55,462 bases of DNA from Fusobacterium sp. DD2 (GTDB lineage: Bacteria; Fusobacteriota; Fusobacteriia; Fusobacteriales; Fusobacteriaceae): the NCBI RefSeq assembly GCF_018205345.1, contig NZ_JADRHM010000006.1, forward strand, positions 1 to 55,462, given 5' to 3'. A program made the translations under genes and the position numbers. Within the stretch, counting starts at the first letter, position 1; every line of letters begins with the position of its first letter. This document shows, piece by piece, positions 37,777 to 47,255 of this stretch. The notes under the pieces are model-generated. The model did not search any database and was not told the origin of the DNA. It worked only from the letters and a program-made list of their open reading frames with translations.

Positions 37777-38583
37777 TTATTTTATGTTTTTTTGTGGTTT
37801 TTTAAGAAAAAATCCTCCAAGTACTCCAATTATAAATGAAGCAAATGGGAATGATAATGCAAGTCCAAATGAGACAAAGTTATTTAAAAATCTAAATTTT
37901 ACAAACTTTGTTAAAAAACTGTAAACTGTTTTTACTCCAAAGAATATAAAAATAACCTGTCCAATTTGTAATAAATTATGTGTATAAAAATTCTCAAGTT
38001 TGAAAATATGGATGAGAAAGAATGGCACAATGTATAAAAGAAGCCACTCAAAAGATACATCCCATTTTTTATAATTATCTACATCTACTGAGATATACAT
38101 AAAAAATACAGATATCATAGCGTAGTCAAATAGATAATAAAGAGAATTATTTTTAATATAAGTTATAAACTGTCTTGTTTCAATAGAATCAAAATCCAGA
38201 TATTTACTGTAAAATTCAGTAAACACTGCATCAAAGTTAATATCTATATGTGTAACAAGGGTATATAGAAATACTCCCATTAATACTGTTACTGCTAATG
38301 ACGTAATAATAATCCTATCAAATTGCTTAGTATTAGGTCTCAAATAATTGAAGTAGTGATAAAGTGCTTCAATTAATATAAAGAACATGAGATAGACTCC
38401 TAAAAGGATAGGGTCTATAATTCCAATTATTACCATAGCTAAAATATTAACTATTAGTTTTGATTTAAATGTCATATTTTTCATTTTTTTTATTTTATAT
38501 ACTGGCAATAAAAAACCTGTAATTGGCAGTAATAAGGATAAAATAAATAATATAACTATTGTAAAAGTATTTAATAAAAACAT
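37777..38583 (-). CDS. YybS-like (DUF2232) membrane protein
   Basis: 268 residues with about eight hydrophobic helices and a basic C-terminal tail. The place directly before rplI-dnaB and the general build fit the DUF2232/YybS family, inner-membrane proteins of unknown function found beside gdpP-rplI-dnaC in Bacillus. Here the gdpP phosphodiesterase gene that normally lies between is absent. The family call depends largely on context. Confidence 0.65.
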   Translation of the reverse strand: MFLLNTFTIVILFILSLLLPITGFLLPVYKIKKMKNMTFKSKLIVNILAMVIIGIIDPILLGVYLMFFILIEALYHYFNYLRPNTKQFDRIIITSLAVTVLMGVFLYTLVTHIDINFDAVFTEFYSKYLDFDSIETRQFITYIKNNSLYYLFDYAMISVFFMYISVDVDNYKKWDVSFEWLLLYIVPFFLIHIFKLENFYTHNLLQIGQVIFIFFGVKTVYSFLTKFVKFRFLNNFVSFGLALSFPFASFIIGVLGGFFLKKPQKNIK

Positions 38584-38603: not shown

Positions 38604-40058
38604 TTATACCATGATTTCTCCACCGAAAAAATCAACTATTTTTTTAGTAAAGTCACTATTGTCATCTTCAGTTGCTTTTTTCTTCCCAACAGTTATATAT
38701 TTTATCTTAATTTTAGGATTAACTAATTTTTTTACAACTTCTAAGAAAACTTCGTGATACATTTTATTTTCCATCTGTTCCTTACAGAAAGTGCTCTCTG
38801 GATTAAACCCAATATAGAGAGTATCACCTTCAACTTTATAAGGTTTAGCAGCAATTAAGAAAGCTCCTAAAGTAATCTTCTCTTTTTTTGCTTCTTTAAC
38901 AATGTCATTCCATTTTCTAGAAATTTGCTCTAAAGTGACACCTTCTAAAGAATCAGATGGTGCAGGTGAAGCGGCTTTAACAGGTTGTGCTTCAACATGC
39001 TTTTCTACTATTTTTTCAATAACTTTTTCAGCAACAGGCTGAGTTGATTTTAAAAGATTATCAATAATTACATATCCAACAAGTCTTTTATCTTCCTCAT
39101 ATTTAAACTTGCTAAGAGATGTAAATATATTATCAATTATCGATAATCCCTCTTTTATATCAAGCTGATTTTTTGACATAAGATTTTTACAATATTTTGC
39201 AAAATCTTTAAAAAAGTCCTCTATTTCAATTGATTCATTCCAATAGTTGTCTAAAGTTTTAACTAAAGCAACATAATCTCTTTTTTGGACTTTTTCTAAA
39301 AAGTCTTTCATCTGTTTGACAGGGGTAACACCTAATACAGTTTCACATTTTTCCACTGTGATTTTTTCATTGAGACATGTTACCATCAATCTTTCTAAAA
39401 TTGATATGGCATCTCTCATACTTCCCCCAGAGTTTTCATATATTATTTCAAAAATATCATCTTCAGTGTCAATCTTTTCCTGTTCACAAATATATTTAAG
39501 TTTTTCTTTCATCTCTTCCATAGAAAGAGCTTTAAAATCATATCTTTGACATCTTGATACTATTGTTGGAAGAATTTTGTCCACTTCAGTAGTAGCAAGA
39601 ATAAAGATAACATGTTCAGGAGGTTCTTCTAAGGTCTTCAAAAGAGCATTAAAAGCTTCCTTTGTAAGCATATGAACCTCGTCTATTATGTATATTTTTT
39701 TACGTCCTTTAACAGGCTGATAATTTATCTTTTCTTTAAGCTGTCTTATCTCGTCAATACCTCTATTTGAAGCTGCGTCAATCTCTATCATATCCATAAA
39801 GGTACCATTGTTTATTGCAAGACAGTTTTCACACTTGTTGCATGGCTCATCTGTCACTTCACTTTCAAGACAGTTTACCCCTTTTGCAATAAGTCTTGCA
39901 AGAGTAGTCTTTCCAACTCCTCTAGGTCCTGTAAAAAGATAAGCATGGGATGTTTTTCCATTTTTAAGAGAGTTTTTAATAGTTCTAACTATCTCTTTTT
40001 GACCAGCCATCTCTTCAAAGTTTTTAGGACGGTATTTTCTATATAAAGTTATATGCAT
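38604..40058 (-). CDS. dnaX: DNA polymerase III subunit gamma/tau (DnaX)
   Basis: 484 residues. The N terminus (LYRKYRPKNFEEMAGQ) and Walker A GPRGVGKT (residues 44-51) are typical of DnaX, as are the zinc-binding cysteines (CLESEVTDEPCNKCENC), Walker B IYIIDEVHML and the SRCQRYDF sensor. The C-terminal third is variable, tau-like but short. The protein is the clamp-loader ATPase that ties polymerase to helicase. I see no convincing programmed frameshift site, so a single product is expected. It begins 7 bases after the NtrC-like gene. Confidence 0.97.
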   Translation of the reverse strand: MHITLYRKYRPKNFEEMAGQKEIVRTIKNSLKNGKTSHAYLFTGPRGVGKTTLARLIAKGVNCLESEVTDEPCNKCENCLAINNGTFMDMIEIDAASNRGIDEIRQLKEKINYQPVKGRKKIYIIDEVHMLTKEAFNALLKTLEEPPEHVIFILATTEVDKILPTIVSRCQRYDFKALSMEEMKEKLKYICEQEKIDTEDDIFEIIYENSGGSMRDAISILERLMVTCLNEKITVEKCETVLGVTPVKQMKDFLEKVQKRDYVALVKTLDNYWNESIEIEDFFKDFAKYCKNLMSKNQLDIKEGLSIIDNIFTSLSKFKYEEDKRLVGYVIIDNLLKSTQPVAEKVIEKIVEKHVEAQPVKAASPAPSDSLEGVTLEQISRKWNDIVKEAKKEKITLGAFLIAAKPYKVEGDTLYIGFNPESTFCKEQMENKMYHEVFLEVVKKLVNPKIKIKYITVGKKKATEDDNSDFTKKIVDFFGGEIMV

Positions 40059-40064
40059 ATTTCA

Positions 40065-41456
40065 TTACTCCAAACCATAATTACTCATTTTTGTCCTCAA
40101 AGTATTTCTTGTTATTCCAAGTATCTCTGCAGTTTCTACTTTTTTACCATTAGTAATTTGCAATACCTGACGAATAAGCTCTTTTTCTACTTTGGAAATT
40201 ATATTACCATAATAATCCTTCTGATTATTTTTCTTAAAGACATCGATTTCACTTTTAATCCATTCTTTTAAATCAGATGTAAGTGCATCTCCCTTTTTCT
40301 TTGTTATCTTAGTACCAAGTACATTGCTAGGTAAATCATCTATTAAAACAGATGTACCACGGCAAAGTGCAACAGCAGATTTAACTGCATTTTTAAGTTC
40401 ATTTACATTGCCAGGCCAGTCATATCTTAATATTTTTTTAAGTGCTGGTTTACTGATACCTTTGATATTTTTATGAAGTTCATCATTACATTCAATAAGA
40501 TAGTGGTCAATTATAAGTGGAATATCATCCTTTCTATCTCTTAAAGGTGGAATATTTACTTCTAAAACTCTTAATTTTCTATAAAGTTCATCTATAAATT
40601 TTCCTTGATTTATAAGTTCCTCAAGGTTTACACAAGTTGTAGCTACCACTCTTATATCTATCTCTATAGGTTCTGCTCCACCTAATCTGAAGAATTTACC
40701 CTCTTCAAGAAAATAAAGTATCTTAGATTGCATATCTAAACTTAAAGATTCAATATTACCAAGGTGTAGTGTTCCACCATTAGCTTTTTCAAGTTCTCCA
40801 ATTTGTGGGAAAACTGCTCCTTTAAATGCTCCTTTTTCATATCCAAATAATTTTCTAGCTAGTAGATCATTTTGGTATGAAGTACAGTTAAGACTTATTA
40901 AAGGTTTGCCAGACCAATCGCTAAATTGGTGTATTGCTTTAGCCACACTTGTTTTTCCTGTTCCTTTTTCTCCAAATACTAGAACTGGAAGTCTACTCAT
41001 TGCCACTTTACCTATCATTTTATAAAGTTCAACAATCTGTTTAGTTTGTCCTATCAGCTTATCTCCTGTGCTTTTATGTTTATCTATTCTTTCAGCTAAC
41101 AGTTTAAAATCTTTTACAGACTTTTCCAGTATTTTTACTATTTCAGGAGCCTCTAAAGGTTTTAGTACATAGTCATATGCACCTGCTTTAATACTTCCAG
41201 CTACGACTTTTAAGTTAGAAGTTTCTCCAAGTACAATTATAACACCTTTTTTTTGGTGCTCTCTTACCATTTTAATAAGATTAATCAGAGCTTCTTCCTG
41301 TAAATTCTTTTCTTCAATTACTATAATCTCGTATTTTTTTGTCTTTAGACAGTCAACAAATTTTGTAATGTCCTCAGCAAAAGTAAGTTCATTTTCAAAA
41401 TTGTTTTCTAATTCCTCTCTCAAGCTCTTTTCTAATCTAAATCCTAAAAGAACCAA
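40065..41456 (-). CDS. NtrC-like regulator with degenerate receiver and AAA+ motifs
   Basis: TTG start at 41456 after AGAGGTGG. The order is receiver domain (1-115), sigma54-activator AAA+ domain (about 135-365) and Fis-type helix-turn-helix (about 420-463, KVETAEILGITRNTLR). Several key residues are changed: the phosphoacceptor position reads VIEE (Glu48) rather than Asp; Walker A GEKGTGKT is kept; GAFTGA is GAFKGA (209-214); Walker B reads HLGN where DE is expected (233-234); sensor II WPGNVNEL has Asn for Arg. The DNA-binding domain looks intact. It is probably a phosphorylation-independent DNA-binding regulator with weak or no ATPase activity. Between tonB and dnaX in the operon. Confidence 0.85.
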   Translation of the reverse strand: MVLLGFRLEKSLREELENNFENELTFAEDITKFVDCLKTKKYEIIVIEEKNLQEEALINLIKMVREHQKKGVIIVLGETSNLKVVAGSIKAGAYDYVLKPLEAPEIVKILEKSVKDFKLLAERIDKHKSTGDKLIGQTKQIVELYKMIGKVAMSRLPVLVFGEKGTGKTSVAKAIHQFSDWSGKPLISLNCTSYQNDLLARKLFGYEKGAFKGAVFPQIGELEKANGGTLHLGNIESLSLDMQSKILYFLEEGKFFRLGGAEPIEIDIRVVATTCVNLEELINQGKFIDELYRKLRVLEVNIPPLRDRKDDIPLIIDHYLIECNDELHKNIKGISKPALKKILRYDWPGNVNELKNAVKSAVALCRGTSVLIDDLPSNVLGTKITKKKGDALTSDLKEWIKSEIDVFKKNNQKDYYGNIISKVEKELIRQVLQITNGKKVETAEILGITRNTLRTKMSNYGLE

Positions 41457-41485: not shown

Positions 41486-42361
41486 TTATTTTAAAACAAA
41501 GTTATATTCTAGTATAACATCACCTTGGACATTAAGTCCATTTTTACTTAAATAAATTTTCCATGTTCTTCCAACTTCTTCAATAGCGTTATTAATTTCA
41601 GGGACTCCACTACCTTTTTCAAGTTTTAAACTACGAACATTTCCATTTTCATCAATATTCATTCTTATTTTAACTGTTCCATGAAGACCTCTTGCCTGAG
41701 CACTTTCAGGATATACAGGCTCCTTATTACTATTATCCCATCTAGCTACAATATCTCCATCCTCTGTTCCAAGCCTATAACCACTTGGAAGTCCTTCTGT
41801 TCCATCTGAAAAATGTAGAATTCTATCAAATTCCTGATCCTTTCCTGCTTCTGAGTTAAATTTAATCTTATCATTATTTAAATCAAGATTTTCTATTTTT
41901 TCAGGGATAGGTTCTTTTTCCAGCTTAATATCATTTTTCAGTTCTGGTTTAGGAGTAGAACTTTTTATCTGTTCATACTGTTTTTTAGGAGTTACAAGAG
42001 TTTTATTTTCTCTTTCAGCTTTTGCAACGCTTAAGACATCAACTTTAGGAGCTACAATTTTTTTGGCAATACTGTCAAGAGCTGCCAAGTCGACTTTATT
42101 TGGGTCCTTTTTAGGTTTTTCATCTTTTTTAGGCTCAGCAGTTTTTTTATTTTTATCAATTTCAGAAGTGATTTTTTTCTGTTGACTATTGCTGTTTTTC
42201 TTTCCATCAAAGACTTTTTTATCCCTGTTGTCATAAGCTACAAGTCCAATTTTTATTTTTTTATTAGCTACATGCTTAGCACTTAGACTTGGTATCAGGA
42301 GAAGAATAATGATATTGATTATAATGGATAGGAAAAAACTTATGCCATCTTCTCTTCTCAT
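41486..42361 (-). CDS. tonB: TonB-like energy transducer
   Basis: 291 residues: one N-terminal membrane helix (ISFFLSIIINIIILLLIPSL), a long Lys/Pro/Glu-rich periplasmic linker (about 50-175), and a C-terminal TonB domain with PVYPESAQARGLHGTVKIRM followed by the GSGVPEINNAIEEV and WKIYL segments. TonB carries the proton-motive energy of ExbB-ExbD to outer-membrane receptors. The exbB-exbD-tonB order is complete here. No TonB-dependent receptor gene is in the window. Confidence 0.9.
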   Translation of the reverse strand: MRREDGISFFLSIIINIIILLLIPSLSAKHVANKKIKIGLVAYDNRDKKVFDGKKNSNSQQKKITSEIDKNKKTAEPKKDEKPKKDPNKVDLAALDSIAKKIVAPKVDVLSVAKAERENKTLVTPKKQYEQIKSSTPKPELKNDIKLEKEPIPEKIENLDLNNDKIKFNSEAGKDQEFDRILHFSDGTEGLPSGYRLGTEDGDIVARWDNSNKEPVYPESAQARGLHGTVKIRMNIDENGNVRSLKLEKGSGVPEINNAIEEVGRTWKIYLSKNGLNVQGDVILEYNFVLK

Positions 42362-42370
42362 TTTGTCCTC

Positions 42371-42802
42371 CTATCTTTTGCTAGAAGTATCAATATCTAA
42401 TGATTGTGCTCCTGCCTCTTTAGAGATTGTCATAATATCTACAATGTAACCATAGTCTAATTTTTTATCAGCACTTATAATAACATTTTTATCCTGCATT
42501 TTGTCAAGTTTTTCTGCAAGTTTGCTTTTTAAACTATCCTTGTTTACAGGAATCTGTTGTGTTTTACCATTTTCTTTGAAATTCATAACCATGTTTTTAT
42601 TTCTATCAACCAGGATTTGAATCTCTTTAATATCTGAAATCTCCTTTATAGTAGATTGTGGTAAATCTATTTTAATACCAGCTTTCATATCATCAAAGGT
42701 GGTAGCTACCAGGAAGAATATCAGTAAAAGAAACACAACGTCTATCAAAGGAGTAAGTTCAAGAATTAGCTCTCCTTTTCTTCTTTGTCTTTCAATTTTC
42801 AT
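42371..42802 (-). CDS. exbD: ExbD/TolR-family proton channel subunit
   Basis: 143 residues with a short basic N terminus (RQRRKGELILELTPLID), a single membrane helix (VVFLLLIFFLVATTF) beginning at the essential aspartate, and a periplasmic domain (IQILVDRNKN, VIISADKKLDYGYIVDIM). These are the marks of ExbD/TolR. With ExbB it forms the proton-driven motor for TonB. 15 bases separate it from exbB. Confidence 0.93.
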   Translation of the reverse strand: MKIERQRRKGELILELTPLIDVVFLLLIFFLVATTFDDMKAGIKIDLPQSTIKEISDIKEIQILVDRNKNMVMNFKENGKTQQIPVNKDSLKSKLAEKLDKMQDKNVIISADKKLDYGYIVDIMTISKEAGAQSLDIDTSSKR

Positions 42803-42816
42803 ATCTAAATCTTCTC

Positions 42817-43428
42817 CTACCCTCTATAATGATTAATAAGTTCAGTTGTAGTTATCTCCATATCTCCAACTATTCTATCTATCTTTTTGTTGAAGTAGTT
42901 GTAGAATATCAAAGCCGGAATAGCTACAAATAATCCTCCTGCTGTTGTGAAAAGAGCTTCTGAAATACCATTTGCAAGGACTGCTGGATCTCCAGTTCCA
43001 TGTAATGCCACTGCCTGGAATGCTTTAATCATACCTGTAACTGTACCTAGTAATCCAAGTAGTGGAGTAAGGTGAGCTGTTAAAGATATAATCCACATAT
43101 TTCTTTCTAAGTATTTAAGTTGAATCATAGCCTTTTCTTTTGCTTTTTCTTCAAGTTTTGCAGGACTTGCACTTGGATTTTTATATATCTCAATAAGTAC
43201 ATCCTTTATTACTTTAGATGTTGAAGAATGCTCCTTATTTACAATTATAAGAGCATTTTTAATATCTCCGTTATCAAGGCACCCTTTAACTTCATTAGGA
43301 AGTCCGCTTTTATTGTTTTTTTCATTTCTAAAGAAGTATATCAGCCTCTCAATAATAGCACTAAGACCAATTATTGACATAATGAGGATAAAATACATTA
43401 GTAATCCGCCGTTTGTTAAATAGTACAT
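42817..43428 (-). CDS. exbB: ExbB/TolQ-family proton channel subunit
   Basis: 203 residues with three membrane helices: N-terminal (LLMYFILIMSIIGLSAII), a second around HLTPLLGLLGTVTGMIKAF, and a third around EALFTTAGGLFVAIPALIFYNYF. The TPLLGLLGTVTGMI and TTAGGLFVAIPAL segments are the conserved MotA/TolQ/ExbB channel signature. It forms the pentameric channel around ExbD. First gene of exbB-exbD-tonB in the leftward operon. Confidence 0.95.
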   Translation of the reverse strand: MYYLTNGGLLMYFILIMSIIGLSAIIERLIYFFRNEKNNKSGLPNEVKGCLDNGDIKNALIIVNKEHSSTSKVIKDVLIEIYKNPSASPAKLEEKAKEKAMIQLKYLERNMWIISLTAHLTPLLGLLGTVTGMIKAFQAVALHGTGDPAVLANGISEALFTTAGGLFVAIPALIFYNYFNKKIDRIVGDMEITTTELINHYRG

Positions 43429-43449: not shown

Positions 43450-43794
43450 TTATAGAGCTATTATTAAAGCTACTACAGCGATTCCGCCGATTATATATTT
43501 TATGAAAGATTTCTCTTCTACACCTTGTGAAAGTTCTTTTTCAAGAGCATTTTTTTGTCCCTGAACCACTTTTATCTTTTGATTCTGATTTTGAAAGTTA
43601 TCGTTAGTAACTTTAATTGCACCAGATTGAATATTTTGATTTTTCAAAAGCACGTCGTTAGTTTCAATCTCTTTCATTTCAAGTTGTTCCTTATTTACCC
43701 CTTGTACCTCTTTACCTATTGTTGTAACATCCTCTTGTGTACCTAATGCTACCATTGTTGATACTAAAAATAAAGCTGCCATTATCTTTTTCAT
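43450..43794 (-). CDS. Small exported protein with C-terminal membrane anchor
   Basis: 114 residues: a signal peptide (MKKIMAALFLVSTMVALG), a polar Gln/Asn-rich middle of about 70 residues with coiled-coil potential, and a C-terminal hydrophobic helix (YIIGGIAVVALIIAL) ending at the last residue. It should be exported and remain anchored in the inner membrane with the middle part in the periplasm. No family recognised. It stands between the giant TPR protein and exbB, 13 to 21 bases from each, so a role with the TonB machinery is likely. Confidence 0.7.
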   Translation of the reverse strand: MKKIMAALFLVSTMVALGTQEDVTTIGKEVQGVNKEQLEMKEIETNDVLLKNQNIQSGAIKVTNDNFQNQNQKIKVVQGQKNALEKELSQGVEEKSFIKYIIGGIAVVALIIAL

Positions 43795-43806: not shown

Positions 43807-46635
43807 CTAATTATTAAAAAATTGATTATATTTACTTGCTGCTTGTTTATCTAACTTTTGTAATTCTGTAAAATATTTTTTAGCCTGAACTTTATTTTGT
43901 CTTTTTAAAGAGAAATAGAGTAATTTCTCCAGAGCAAAATCTCTGTGTTCAAAGTCTTTGTCATCATAAAGCTCTTTATAAAGTTTTTCAGCTTCTTTAT
44001 TGTTTTGAAGTTTTTCAGCAACTTGTGCTGCTTTAAATTTTGAAATCTTACTGTAATTTCCGTTATACATTACATATCCTTTTGTATAACCTCTCAATGC
44101 ATCTTTATTTTTTCCCTGCAGTTCATTAATAGTGGAAAGCTGAAGTAATACAAAATCTTTATATCTACTATTTTCAAGTTCATCTACTCCAGTGTAGTAG
44201 ATTTTTGCCTTGTCATAGATTTTCTTATCAAAATAGTAATCTCCAAGTTTTATTCCAGCCATCTCTTTGTATTTAGTTCCCTGGAATAGTTTTTCGTACT
44301 CTTTTATAGCTTCCTCTTTCTTATTTTCTCTTTCAAGAATTAAAGATTTGTAATATCCTTTAATCTCTTCATTTTTAACATTTGAAACACTTTCCATTGC
44401 TTCTTCTACTTTATTTTGTGCAAGAAGTGCATCTAATATTTTAGTAGCTGCCTCTTCTTTTACATTATCATTTTTTGCATTTTCATAAAGTGCTCTGTAG
44501 TTCTTAATTATTTTATCAGCATTTCCGCTATTTTCATAGATTTGACCTGAAAGAATATAGATATTCTCTTTCATAGGACTATTTGGATATCTTTCCAGAA
44601 AAGCCTTTTTCTCAATCTCAAACTGATCTATATTTCCAAGATTAACAAGAGAATTAAGATACCAGTAATTAGCATTTTCAGTATACTTTCCATTTGGGAA
44701 ATTGTGTGCTACTAAAGAGTAGTTTTCCATAGCTTTTTCATAATTTTTCTGTCCATAATAGCTGTCAGCAATTTGGAATTGAGCATACTCTTCATATCCT
44801 GGAATAGTTTTTAAACGTTCATAAGTTTCTCTACTCTTATCAAAGTCATCTAATCTGAAATAACTTATTGCCATCTTATCTAATGCTTCTCCAACATTTT
44901 CTCCCTGTGGATATTCATGTATATAAACTTCAGCATTTCCTATGGCATTTTTATAATCTTCTGCTAAGAAACGATTTCTTACTTTATTTATTTGAACCTT
45001 TTCCAAAAGCTCTGGTGATACATTTGGAGTTTCTTCTATTTTTTTAAAATACTCAGCAGCTTCATTATATTTTCCAATACCTATATAGGCTACCCCTTTT
45101 AGATACATGTTATCAAGTGCGTCATCCATTTGAGATAAGTATTCAAGCATCTCATCATATTTTTTTCCTGCAAGTAAAGTTGTAATAAGGTTATTTAAAA
45201 TATCAAAATCCTGGCTTGTACCTAAATATTCCTTATATACATTAGCAGCTTCATCTAACTTGCCTTTTTTATAATAAAGCTCTCCCATTGCAAGATATAT
45301 ATTTTTCTTTTTCTCTCCAGCAGCAGAGAATTTATTCTTATACTCATTAAATCTTATCTGCATATCTTCAAGATCTTCTATTTTGTTATCTATGATAAGT
45401 ATTCTATAAAGATTTTCAGCATTTGGATTAGCTGCATACATTCTTCCATAATAATCTCTGGAAAGATTCAGTTTTCCAAGTTCATATGCTGAGTTAGCTA
45501 TAATAAGATTTATGCTTTCAGTATCCTGTTGATTTACAATAACCCTTTTTATCTCTTCTCTATTATCAATTATTTTTTTGTAATTTTTTAACTGATAGTC
45601 TATTGCAAATATATAGTACATAGCCTGATTGTAGTATGATGTATTTTTAAGACTTTCAAAATATGTCTGAGCTTCTTTAAGTCTTCCTAATTTAAAAAGT
45701 GAAAATCCATAGCTGTATAGTAGCTTTGGATTATTTAGATCTTTTATTTGGCTATAATACTCTATTGCTTTTTCATATTCTCCTTTTGTAGCATATGAAT
45801 CACCAAGTATTCTTAATCCTTCATTATAGTCAGTTGGATTTTTTAAAAGTGCAATTTTTTCTTCAGTTGTTTTAATATCCCCTCTGTTACTATAAATTTC
45901 AATTAGGTTAAGGATTGCTCTTTGGCCATATGCACTATCTTTATCTGCATCAATAGCCTTATCAAATGCCTCTATTGCAGAATCAATATTATTCTTTTTG
46001 TAATATGCAGAACCAAGAAGATAATACATAAACTCCTTGTGCTTTTTACCTCTTTCATTTGAATATTTTTCTACATAGTTTATACACTGATCATAATTTT
46101 TCTGATTATATGATAGTAAGGCCATGTTTAAAAGGACATCACTGTAATATTTGCTATCTTTACTGATAAGTGCATATGCATCTTCTGCATCTTTATAATG
46201 TTCTTTAGCAAGATAAGCAGTAGCACTGTCTAGAATAGCTTTATCATAATAATCATTTTTAGGATCTATAAGTTTTAAATATTCCATACTTGTGTTTTTA
46301 TCACCAAGGGCAGCATAAGATCTTACAAGATAATACTCTATCTCTGGTTTTTCTTTTCTTCCCAAATCCCCAGTCATAAGAAGCATTTTAAAATATTTAA
46401 TCGCATCGTCATAGTTTTCCTGTAAAAAATATACCTTTGCAATTCTATCCATAATGCTTTTATTATATTTAGATGTTGGATATTTATCTAAAAACTCTTT
46501 AGATTCAACAATAGCCATATCAAAGTTTTTCTGTTTATAAAGTTCGTCTACAAATTTTAAGTCATCTCTTTCAGAAGCGAAAGAGGCCATACTCAATGCA
46601 AAAATAAGAGCTGTTGCAAAATATTTTCTTTTCAA
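43807..46635 (-). CDS. Large exported TPR-repeat protein
   Basis: 942 residues: a signal peptide (MKRKYFATALIFALSMASFA) and then tetratricopeptide repeats along the whole length (for instance YDDAIKYFKMLL, IDSAIEAFDKAI, YEKAIEYYSQI, YEKAMENYSLV), probably more than twenty, related in look to the CpoB/BamD type of envelope TPR. It should form a periplasmic superhelix and scaffold other proteins. It is directly before the small anchored protein and exbB-exbD-tonB; in other phyla TPR proteins work with Tol/TonB motors to coordinate envelope processes. The partners here are not known. Confidence 0.85.
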   Translation of the reverse strand: MKRKYFATALIFALSMASFASERDDLKFVDELYKQKNFDMAIVESKEFLDKYPTSKYNKSIMDRIAKVYFLQENYDDAIKYFKMLLMTGDLGRKEKPEIEYYLVRSYAALGDKNTSMEYLKLIDPKNDYYDKAILDSATAYLAKEHYKDAEDAYALISKDSKYYSDVLLNMALLSYNQKNYDQCINYVEKYSNERGKKHKEFMYYLLGSAYYKKNNIDSAIEAFDKAIDADKDSAYGQRAILNLIEIYSNRGDIKTTEEKIALLKNPTDYNEGLRILGDSYATKGEYEKAIEYYSQIKDLNNPKLLYSYGFSLFKLGRLKEAQTYFESLKNTSYYNQAMYYIFAIDYQLKNYKKIIDNREEIKRVIVNQQDTESINLIIANSAYELGKLNLSRDYYGRMYAANPNAENLYRILIIDNKIEDLEDMQIRFNEYKNKFSAAGEKKKNIYLAMGELYYKKGKLDEAANVYKEYLGTSQDFDILNNLITTLLAGKKYDEMLEYLSQMDDALDNMYLKGVAYIGIGKYNEAAEYFKKIEETPNVSPELLEKVQINKVRNRFLAEDYKNAIGNAEVYIHEYPQGENVGEALDKMAISYFRLDDFDKSRETYERLKTIPGYEEYAQFQIADSYYGQKNYEKAMENYSLVAHNFPNGKYTENANYWYLNSLVNLGNIDQFEIEKKAFLERYPNSPMKENIYILSGQIYENSGNADKIIKNYRALYENAKNDNVKEEAATKILDALLAQNKVEEAMESVSNVKNEEIKGYYKSLILERENKKEEAIKEYEKLFQGTKYKEMAGIKLGDYYFDKKIYDKAKIYYTGVDELENSRYKDFVLLQLSTINELQGKNKDALRGYTKGYVMYNGNYSKISKFKAAQVAEKLQNNKEAEKLYKELYDDKDFEHRDFALEKLLYFSLKRQNKVQAKKYFTELQKLDKQAASKYNQFFNN

Positions 46636-47226: not shown

Positions 47227-47255
47227 ATTATATCATATTTAAATTCATATTTCAA
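47227..47255 (-). promoter_or_regulatory. Promoter of the 13-gene leftward operon
   Basis: On the minus strand TTGAAA (complement of 47250-47255) and TATAAT (complement of 47227-47232) are 17 bp apart, 33 bases before the DUF116 start. No gap longer than 31 bases and no terminator is seen among the 13 genes that follow. Confidence 0.75.

What the first reader, a model, noticed from the sequence alone, without database searches (positions are those of the whole stretch)
40065..41456. NtrC-like protein that has lost phosphoacceptor, Walker B, GAFTGA and sensor II residues
The fold is complete and the Fis-type DNA-binding domain looks intact, but the receiver has Glu for Asp, Walker B has GN for DE, GAFTGA is GAFKGA and the sensor II Arg is Asn. 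Several independent losses with a sound frame suggest selection for a new function without sigma54 activation, such as repression or coupling to TonB or replication genes.
Basis: partly seen in the sequence, partly recalled or inferred. Interest (0 to 1): 0.6.

Follow-up and report, generated by a model that had tools for sequence, protein, structure and literature searches.

The report
ATPase-dead NtrC-like regulator in fusobacteria
This is a gene-control protein descended from an ATP-driven activator of the special sigma-54 transcription machinery; across a whole family of fusobacteria it has lost the ATP-burning parts but is strictly preserved, even in species that no longer have sigma-54, so it must now work another way.

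Summary
The 463-aa protein (40065-41456, minus strand) has receiver, AAA+ and Fis-type HTH domains. This is not strain decay. In 50 Fusobacteriaceae orthologues Walker B is (G/A)(N/S) in all, finger 1 is Ile in 49, Walker A is intact in all, and dN/dS is about 0.01-0.04. A syntenic orthologue in a sister family (L064) has every AAA+ motif intact and branches basally, so the motifs were lost later. The window's genome does encode rpoN and intact bEBPs, but several near-complete relatives without rpoN keep the gene; in G048 it is the only full-length domain of its class. It sits after exbB-exbD-tonB throughout, and before dnaX in most. The best reading is a hydrolysis-dead, sigma54-independent DNA-binding regulator; targets and sign of action are unknown. 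A 2011 survey already noted that F. nucleatum lacks sigma54 but has an EBP with GAFEGA. Sigma54-independent bEBPs are known; new is a family-wide, selectively fixed loss of the ATPase itself, with the intact type still visible.

The parts
40065..41456 (-). NtrC-like (bEBP-homologous) pseudo-ATPase regulator, 463 aa, TTG start
   Evidence: ORF; Pfam domains; orthologues in 50+ Fusobacteriaceae
41103..41456 (-). atypical receiver domain (residues 1-118): no acidic pair, Glu48 for Asp, Leu76 for Thr, Lys99 kept
40950..40973 (-). Walker A GEKGTGKT (162-169), G-G-G-K invariant in 50/50 orthologues
40815..40832 (-). L1 loop GAFKGA (209-214), position 4 variable in orthologues (E21 K11 F7 T4 P4 Q2 A1)
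40743..40769 (-). degenerate but conserved Walker B LHLGNIESL (230-238); DE replaced by GN
   Evidence: G47/A3, N49/S1, E236 50/50
40623..40652 (-). sensor I region (269-278), Asn replaced by Cys275
   Evidence: S41 C7 N1 T1
40566..40601 (-). arginine-finger region KFIDELYRKLRV (286-297); R to I288 and K294
   Evidence: I49/S1; K39 R10 T1
40383..40421 (-). sensor II region DWPGNVNELKNAV (346-358); Arg replaced by Asn352
   Evidence: N33 R9 T4 S3 Y1
40068..40211 (-). Fis-type HTH (416-463), most conserved domain (23 of 48 columns invariant)
41486..42361 (-). tonB-like gene immediately upstream, 29 nt gap
42371..42802 (-). exbD
42817..43428 (-). exbB
43807..46635 (-). TPR protein, first conserved gene of the tpr-exbB-exbD-tonB-regulator block
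38604..40058 (-). dnaX, 6 nt downstream
47227..47255 (-). sigma70-type promoter TTGAAA-17-TATAAT with TG, upstream of the operon; conserved in congeners

Best explanation
It is a sigma54-independent, DNA-binding transcription regulator derived from an NtrC-class activator. Its AAA+ domain can no longer hydrolyse ATP and instead serves as a fixed scaffold, probably an oligomer that may still hold a nucleotide through Walker A. The Fis-type HTH places it on DNA, where it controls promoters of the ordinary sigma70-type RNA polymerase without ATP-driven remodelling. Its constant place behind exbB-exbD-tonB suggests its job concerns the cell envelope or TonB energisation. Shown: domain architecture, motif losses, their family-wide fixation, purifying selection, retention without rpoN, intact basal orthologue, synteny. 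Inferred: DNA binding, no ATP hydrolysis, oligomerisation, action on sigma70 promoters, the envelope link. Unknown: whether it represses, activates or acts as a Fis-like architectural protein; repression or architectural binding is slightly preferred because no remodelling is then needed.
For: The catalytic AAA+ positions are replaced while Walker A G-G-G-K is 50/50. The replacements are themselves conserved (N234 49/50, E236 50/50, I288 49/50, E290 50/50). The HTH is the most conserved domain; it matches Fis at E 1.8e-6. dN/dS 0.009-0.044 over the whole gene, AAA+ included. Near-complete rpoN-less genomes keep it: G037 (1 contig), G041, G042, G043, G048 (100% complete), also G044; in G048 it is the only full-length Sigma54_activat domain. 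The intact orthologue L064 is syntenic and basal. Control: paralogue B loses GAFTGA in the twelve rpoN-less genomes read, yet in eleven of them keeps most or all ATPase residues, so sigma54 loss alone does not erase the ATPase site. Published: R. capsulatus NtrC needs ATP binding, not hydrolysis, at sigma70 promoters, and VpsR needs no ATP (as cited in PMC10274813); PspF E108Q, an acid-to-amide change at the same Walker B residue, is hydrolysis-defective and constitutively hexameric (PMC4132715).
Against: No operator, target gene or phenotype was found: footprinting upstream of the operon showed only a conserved promoter, and NtrC-type palindromes in the genome looked coding. Loss of the Mg-binding Asp could abolish nucleotide binding too. 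The gene is dispensable in one genus (g7), where it is cleanly missing between tonB and dnaX. ATPase loss is inferred from sequence only.
Confidence: 0.66

Rival explanations
1. It acts only through other bEBPs, as an inactive subunit that co-assembles with an intact paralogue and tunes sigma54 activation or its own paralogue B.
For: The window genome has five other full bEBP domains, mostly intact, and rpoN; bEBPs are ring assemblies.
Against: G048 has neither rpoN nor another full-length bEBP domain yet keeps the gene; the HTH is its most conserved domain and differs from that of paralogue B at many lineage-specific columns.
Confidence: 0.1
2. It remains a sigma54 activator using a non-canonical or very weak ATPase.
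For: rpoN is present in the window genome; four congeners (L020-L022, L024) still read GAFTGA.
Against: Walker B Asp and Glu, sensor I, both fingers and sensor II are gone together; retained in several genomes without rpoN; the operon's own promoter is sigma70-type.
Confidence: 0.04
3. Decay in progress: the gene is on its way to being a pseudogene.
For: Complete loss in g7; variable L1 loop and receiver Asp.
Against: dN/dS 0.01-0.04, all frames open, invariant replacement residues, preserved over a family at 49-87% identity.
Confidence: 0.02
4. A Fis-like nucleoid or replication-linked DNA-binding protein rather than a promoter-specific regulator; the dnaX-rplI-dnaB neighbourhood is the functional clue.
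For: HTH resembles Fis; dnaX directly downstream in most loci.
Against: In genus g12 the gene stays with tonB but not with dnaX; large receiver and AAA+ domains kept under selection are not needed for simple Fis-like binding.
Confidence: 0.15

Closest known systems
Putative EBP of Fusobacterium nucleatum ATCC 25586 noted by Francke et al. 2011 (PMC3162934)
   Same: Fusobacterial EBP homologue with Glu at position 4 of GAFTGA in an organism without sigma54; Glu there is the commonest state among the orthologues here (21 of 50).
   Different: The passages read discuss GAFTGA only, not loss of Walker B, sensor I or arginine fingers, conservation, synteny or an intact ancestor type. Identity with this gene is likely but was not tested.
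Rhodobacter capsulatus NtrC and Caulobacter NtrC (GAFTGA-deleted NtrC at sigma70 promoters)
   Same: NtrC-class protein working without sigma54; ATP binding, not hydrolysis, suffices in R. capsulatus (as cited in PMC10274813).
   Different: These have deletions in L1 and phosphorylatable receivers with a required Asp; Caulobacter NtrC needs its Walker B Asp. Here L1 is full length and Walker B, fingers and sensor I are lost.
VpsR of Vibrio cholerae (PDB 7v2b)
   Same: Receiver-AAA+-HTH protein at sigma70 promoters, no ATP required (as cited in PMC10274813); detectable homologue, E 1.2e-40.
   Different: Uses c-di-GMP; no sign here either way.
TyrR, DhaR, HupR (EBP homologues with non-functional GAFTGA)
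   Same: Listed as EBP homologues made non-functional for sigma54 by GAFTGA changes (PMC3162934).
   Different: Not orthologous; the window protein scores far below the TyrR and DhaR NCBIfam cut-offs.
E. coli Fis
   Same: HTH homologous (1ety, E 1.8e-6).
   Different: Fis is a 98-aa stand-alone protein; here the HTH sits behind receiver and AAA+ domains.

Membership tests
sigma54-dependent bEBP (NtrC class) | Sigma54_activat AAA+ domain with lid and Fis-type HTH | tested here: met
   PF00158 E 2.8e-53, PF25601 1.3e-23, PF02954 2.7e-11
sigma54-dependent bEBP (NtrC class) | Walker A nucleotide-binding motif | tested here: met
   GEKGTGK, 50/50 orthologues
sigma54-dependent bEBP (NtrC class) | Walker B DE, sensor I Asn, arginine fingers, sensor II Arg (ATP hydrolysis) | tested here: not met
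   G233-N234, C275, I288/K294, N352
sigma54-dependent bEBP (NtrC class) | GAFTGA sigma54-contact loop | tested here: not met
   GAFKGA; Thr in only 4 of 50 orthologues
sigma54-dependent bEBP (NtrC class) | co-occurrence with rpoN | tested here: not met
   rpoN in own genome, but the gene is kept in near-complete rpoN-less genomes G037, G041-G043, G048
NtrC / NR(I) equivalog TIGR01818 | score above the curated cut-off | tested here: not met
   334.7 against 558.6 bits
phosphorylation-controlled response regulator | acidic pair, phosphoacceptor Asp, Thr/Ser, Lys | tested here: not met
   only Lys99 kept; Glu48 for Asp (Asp in 23 of 50 orthologues), acidic pair and Thr absent
sigma54-independent NtrC-like regulators (R. 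capsulatus NtrC, VpsR, TyrR type) | regulates sigma70 promoters in vitro or in vivo | not testable with these tools
   needs experiment; consistent with retention without rpoN
Fis family | Fis-type HTH | tested here: met
Fis family | small stand-alone nucleoid protein | tested here: not met
   463 aa with receiver and AAA+ domains

The most novel reading that the evidence does not exclude
The AAA+ ring of a sigma54 activator has been remade into a hydrolysis-free, conformationally fixed DNA-bound scaffold (with its own conserved site signature LHLGNIESL and FI[DE]ELY), which reports the state of the ExbBD-TonB envelope system to sigma70 transcription; the former ATPase pocket may now bind another ligand. 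Fusobacteria would then show each step of the conversion, from the intact type (L064) to the dead one.
Probability: 0.15. Interest if true: 0.72.

Novelty: new variant of a known kind. Interest (0 to 1): 0.5.

Why it matters
bEBPs are the textbook case of transcription factors that must burn ATP. The sigma54-independent relatives described in the papers read are recognised mainly by loss of the sigma54-contact loop. Here a whole bacterial family keeps one under strong selection after losing the ATPase itself, in genomes with and without sigma54, with an intact sister-family orthologue at the same locus. That makes it testable what the AAA+ domain of such proteins is for when it cannot turn over ATP. 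It also warns that annotation by Pfam, or by GAFTGA alone, would wrongly call these proteins sigma54 activators (four congeners still have GAFTGA on a dead ATPase).

Tried and rejected
Operator search: alignment of the region upstream of the operon in 10 congeners gave a conserved sigma70-type promoter but no clear palindrome. NtrC-like palindromes TGCAC-N5-9-GTGCA in the genome: six sites, no preferred spacing, and the five read look coding; not informative. The AlphaFold model with five aligned sequences had pLDDT 39.6 and was discarded, so no fold search was run. The named-genome scan reached only F. mortiferum and Cetobacterium, so the F. nucleatum gene could not be checked. Literature searches on fusobacterial sigma54, NtrC and Tn-seq found only the 2011 survey as directly relevant. 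The idea that the decay simply follows rpoN loss was rejected: most genomes with the dead ATPase still have rpoN.

Full report
WHAT IS THERE. The window is contig C6 of a 2.36-Mb fusobacterial genome; the nearest named relative found is Fusobacterium mortiferum, whose orthologue is 87% identical. ORF 40065-41456 (-) encodes 463 aa with a receiver, a Sigma54_activat AAA+ domain with lid, and a Fis-type HTH. Further losses: receiver acidic pair and Thr, sensor I Asn (Cys275) and both arginine fingers (Ile288, Lys294). Walker A is intact.

NOT STRAIN DECAY. Sixty-two of 98 Fusobacteriota genomes have a match; true orthologues, mostly 49-87% identical, occur throughout Fusobacteriaceae. In 50 of them: Walker A G-G-G-K 50/50; Walker B Asp is Gly 47 or Ala 3; Walker B Glu is Asn 49 or Ser 1; finger 1 Arg is Ile 49 or Ser 1; finger 2 is Lys 39, Arg 10, Thr 1; sensor I is Ser 41, Cys 7, Asn 1, Thr 1; sensor II is Asn 33, Arg 9, others 8; E236 is 50/50. 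Position 4 of GAFTGA varies freely (E21 K11 F7 T4 P4 Q2 A1), and in seven the loop is rewritten. So the sigma54-contact residue is unconstrained while the dead ATPase site has its own conserved sequence. dN/dS (Nei-Gojobori) over 16 close pairs is 0.009-0.044 for the whole gene and as low in the AAA+ domain; some dS values exceed 1 and are rough.

WHERE IT CAME FROM. The orthologue in G062 (same order, another family; L064) has DE, GAFTGA, ATN, FRDDLYHRL and NIRELK all intact; it lies in the same tpr-exbB-exbD-tonB-X-dnaX order and branches first within the orthologous clade when paralogues serve as outgroup (some long branches, so the deep order is unsure). G063 (EE, FRDELYHKL), G097 (ED, FM) and G045/G046 (KK/KE) are degenerate in other ways at the same locus. 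L064's receiver already lacks part of the acidic pair and the Thr, so phospho-control may have been lost before ATP hydrolysis; this order is inference.

SIGMA54. The window genome has rpoN (PF04552 and PF04963) and several intact bEBPs. But near-complete genomes without rpoN keep the gene: G037 (one contig), G041, G042, G043, G048 (100%), plus G044 and less complete ones. On the gene tree these are about three or four separate losses; no species tree was made. In G048 it is the only full-length domain of its class. Thus its conserved function does not need sigma54. A control sharpens this: paralogue B (L005; L101-L120) has lost GAFTGA in the twelve rpoN-less genomes read, but in most it keeps Walker B acids, sensor I, arginine fingers and sensor II (G018 is partly degenerate; G039/G040 have DQ). 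Loss of the sigma54 role therefore need not erase the ATPase; the window protein went further.

NEIGHBOURHOOD. In the loci with enough flank, tonB lies directly upstream; dnaX lies directly downstream except in genus g12. Genus g7 has tonB next to dnaX with the gene cleanly absent, so it is not universally essential. The operon's promoter is a conserved sigma70-type one. Co-transcription with exbBD-tonB is inferred from spacing.

MECHANISM. Published work gives anchors: R. capsulatus NtrC needs ATP binding but not hydrolysis at sigma70 promoters, and VpsR needs no ATP (as cited in PMC10274813); in PspF the Walker B E108Q change nearly abolishes hydrolysis, tightens ATP binding and gives constitutive hexamers, with N64 as switch partner (PMC4132715). 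The window protein has an acid-to-amide change at the same position (N234) and keeps the presumed partner Asn190 in nearly all orthologues, but has also lost the Mg-binding Asp and the fingers. I infer a fixed, non-hydrolysing DNA-bound assembly acting at sigma70 promoters. Whether it represses or activates cannot be told from sequence.

PRIOR ART. Francke et al. 2011 (PMC3162934) noted that F. nucleatum ATCC 25586 lacks sigma54 but has a putative EBP with Glu at GAFTGA position 4 and proposed sigma70 dependence; this is probably an orthologue, not tested here. Added here are the ATPase loss, its fixation, the intact sister-family type, the synteny and the paralogue contrast.

Noticed in passing
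L005 (G000:C62:4767-6098) and L101-L120: A second NtrC-like protein conserved across Fusobacteriaceae keeps most ATPase residues but has GAFPGA, GAFLGA, GALHGV and the like in place of GAFTGA in most genomes, including the twelve rpoN-less ones read. It may be an ATPase-competent, sigma54-free bEBP, the opposite trajectory to the window protein.
   Followed up: partly
L073 and L075 (G039, G040): Genus g7 lacks the gene cleanly between tonB and dnaX and also lacks rpoN.
   Followed up: partly
window 43450-43794 (-): A 114-aa secreted-looking protein with no convincing family match sits between the TPR gene and exbB and is conserved in many Fusobacteriaceae; possibly an unrecognised part of the ExbBD-TonB module.
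   Followed up: no
window 37777-38583 (-): A 268-aa membrane-like protein without a Pfam match is conserved between dnaX and rplI.
   Followed up: no
G048:C19:6986-7438: A 568-aa protein matches the two ends of the Sigma54_activat domain with the middle missing, in a genome without rpoN.
   Followed up: no
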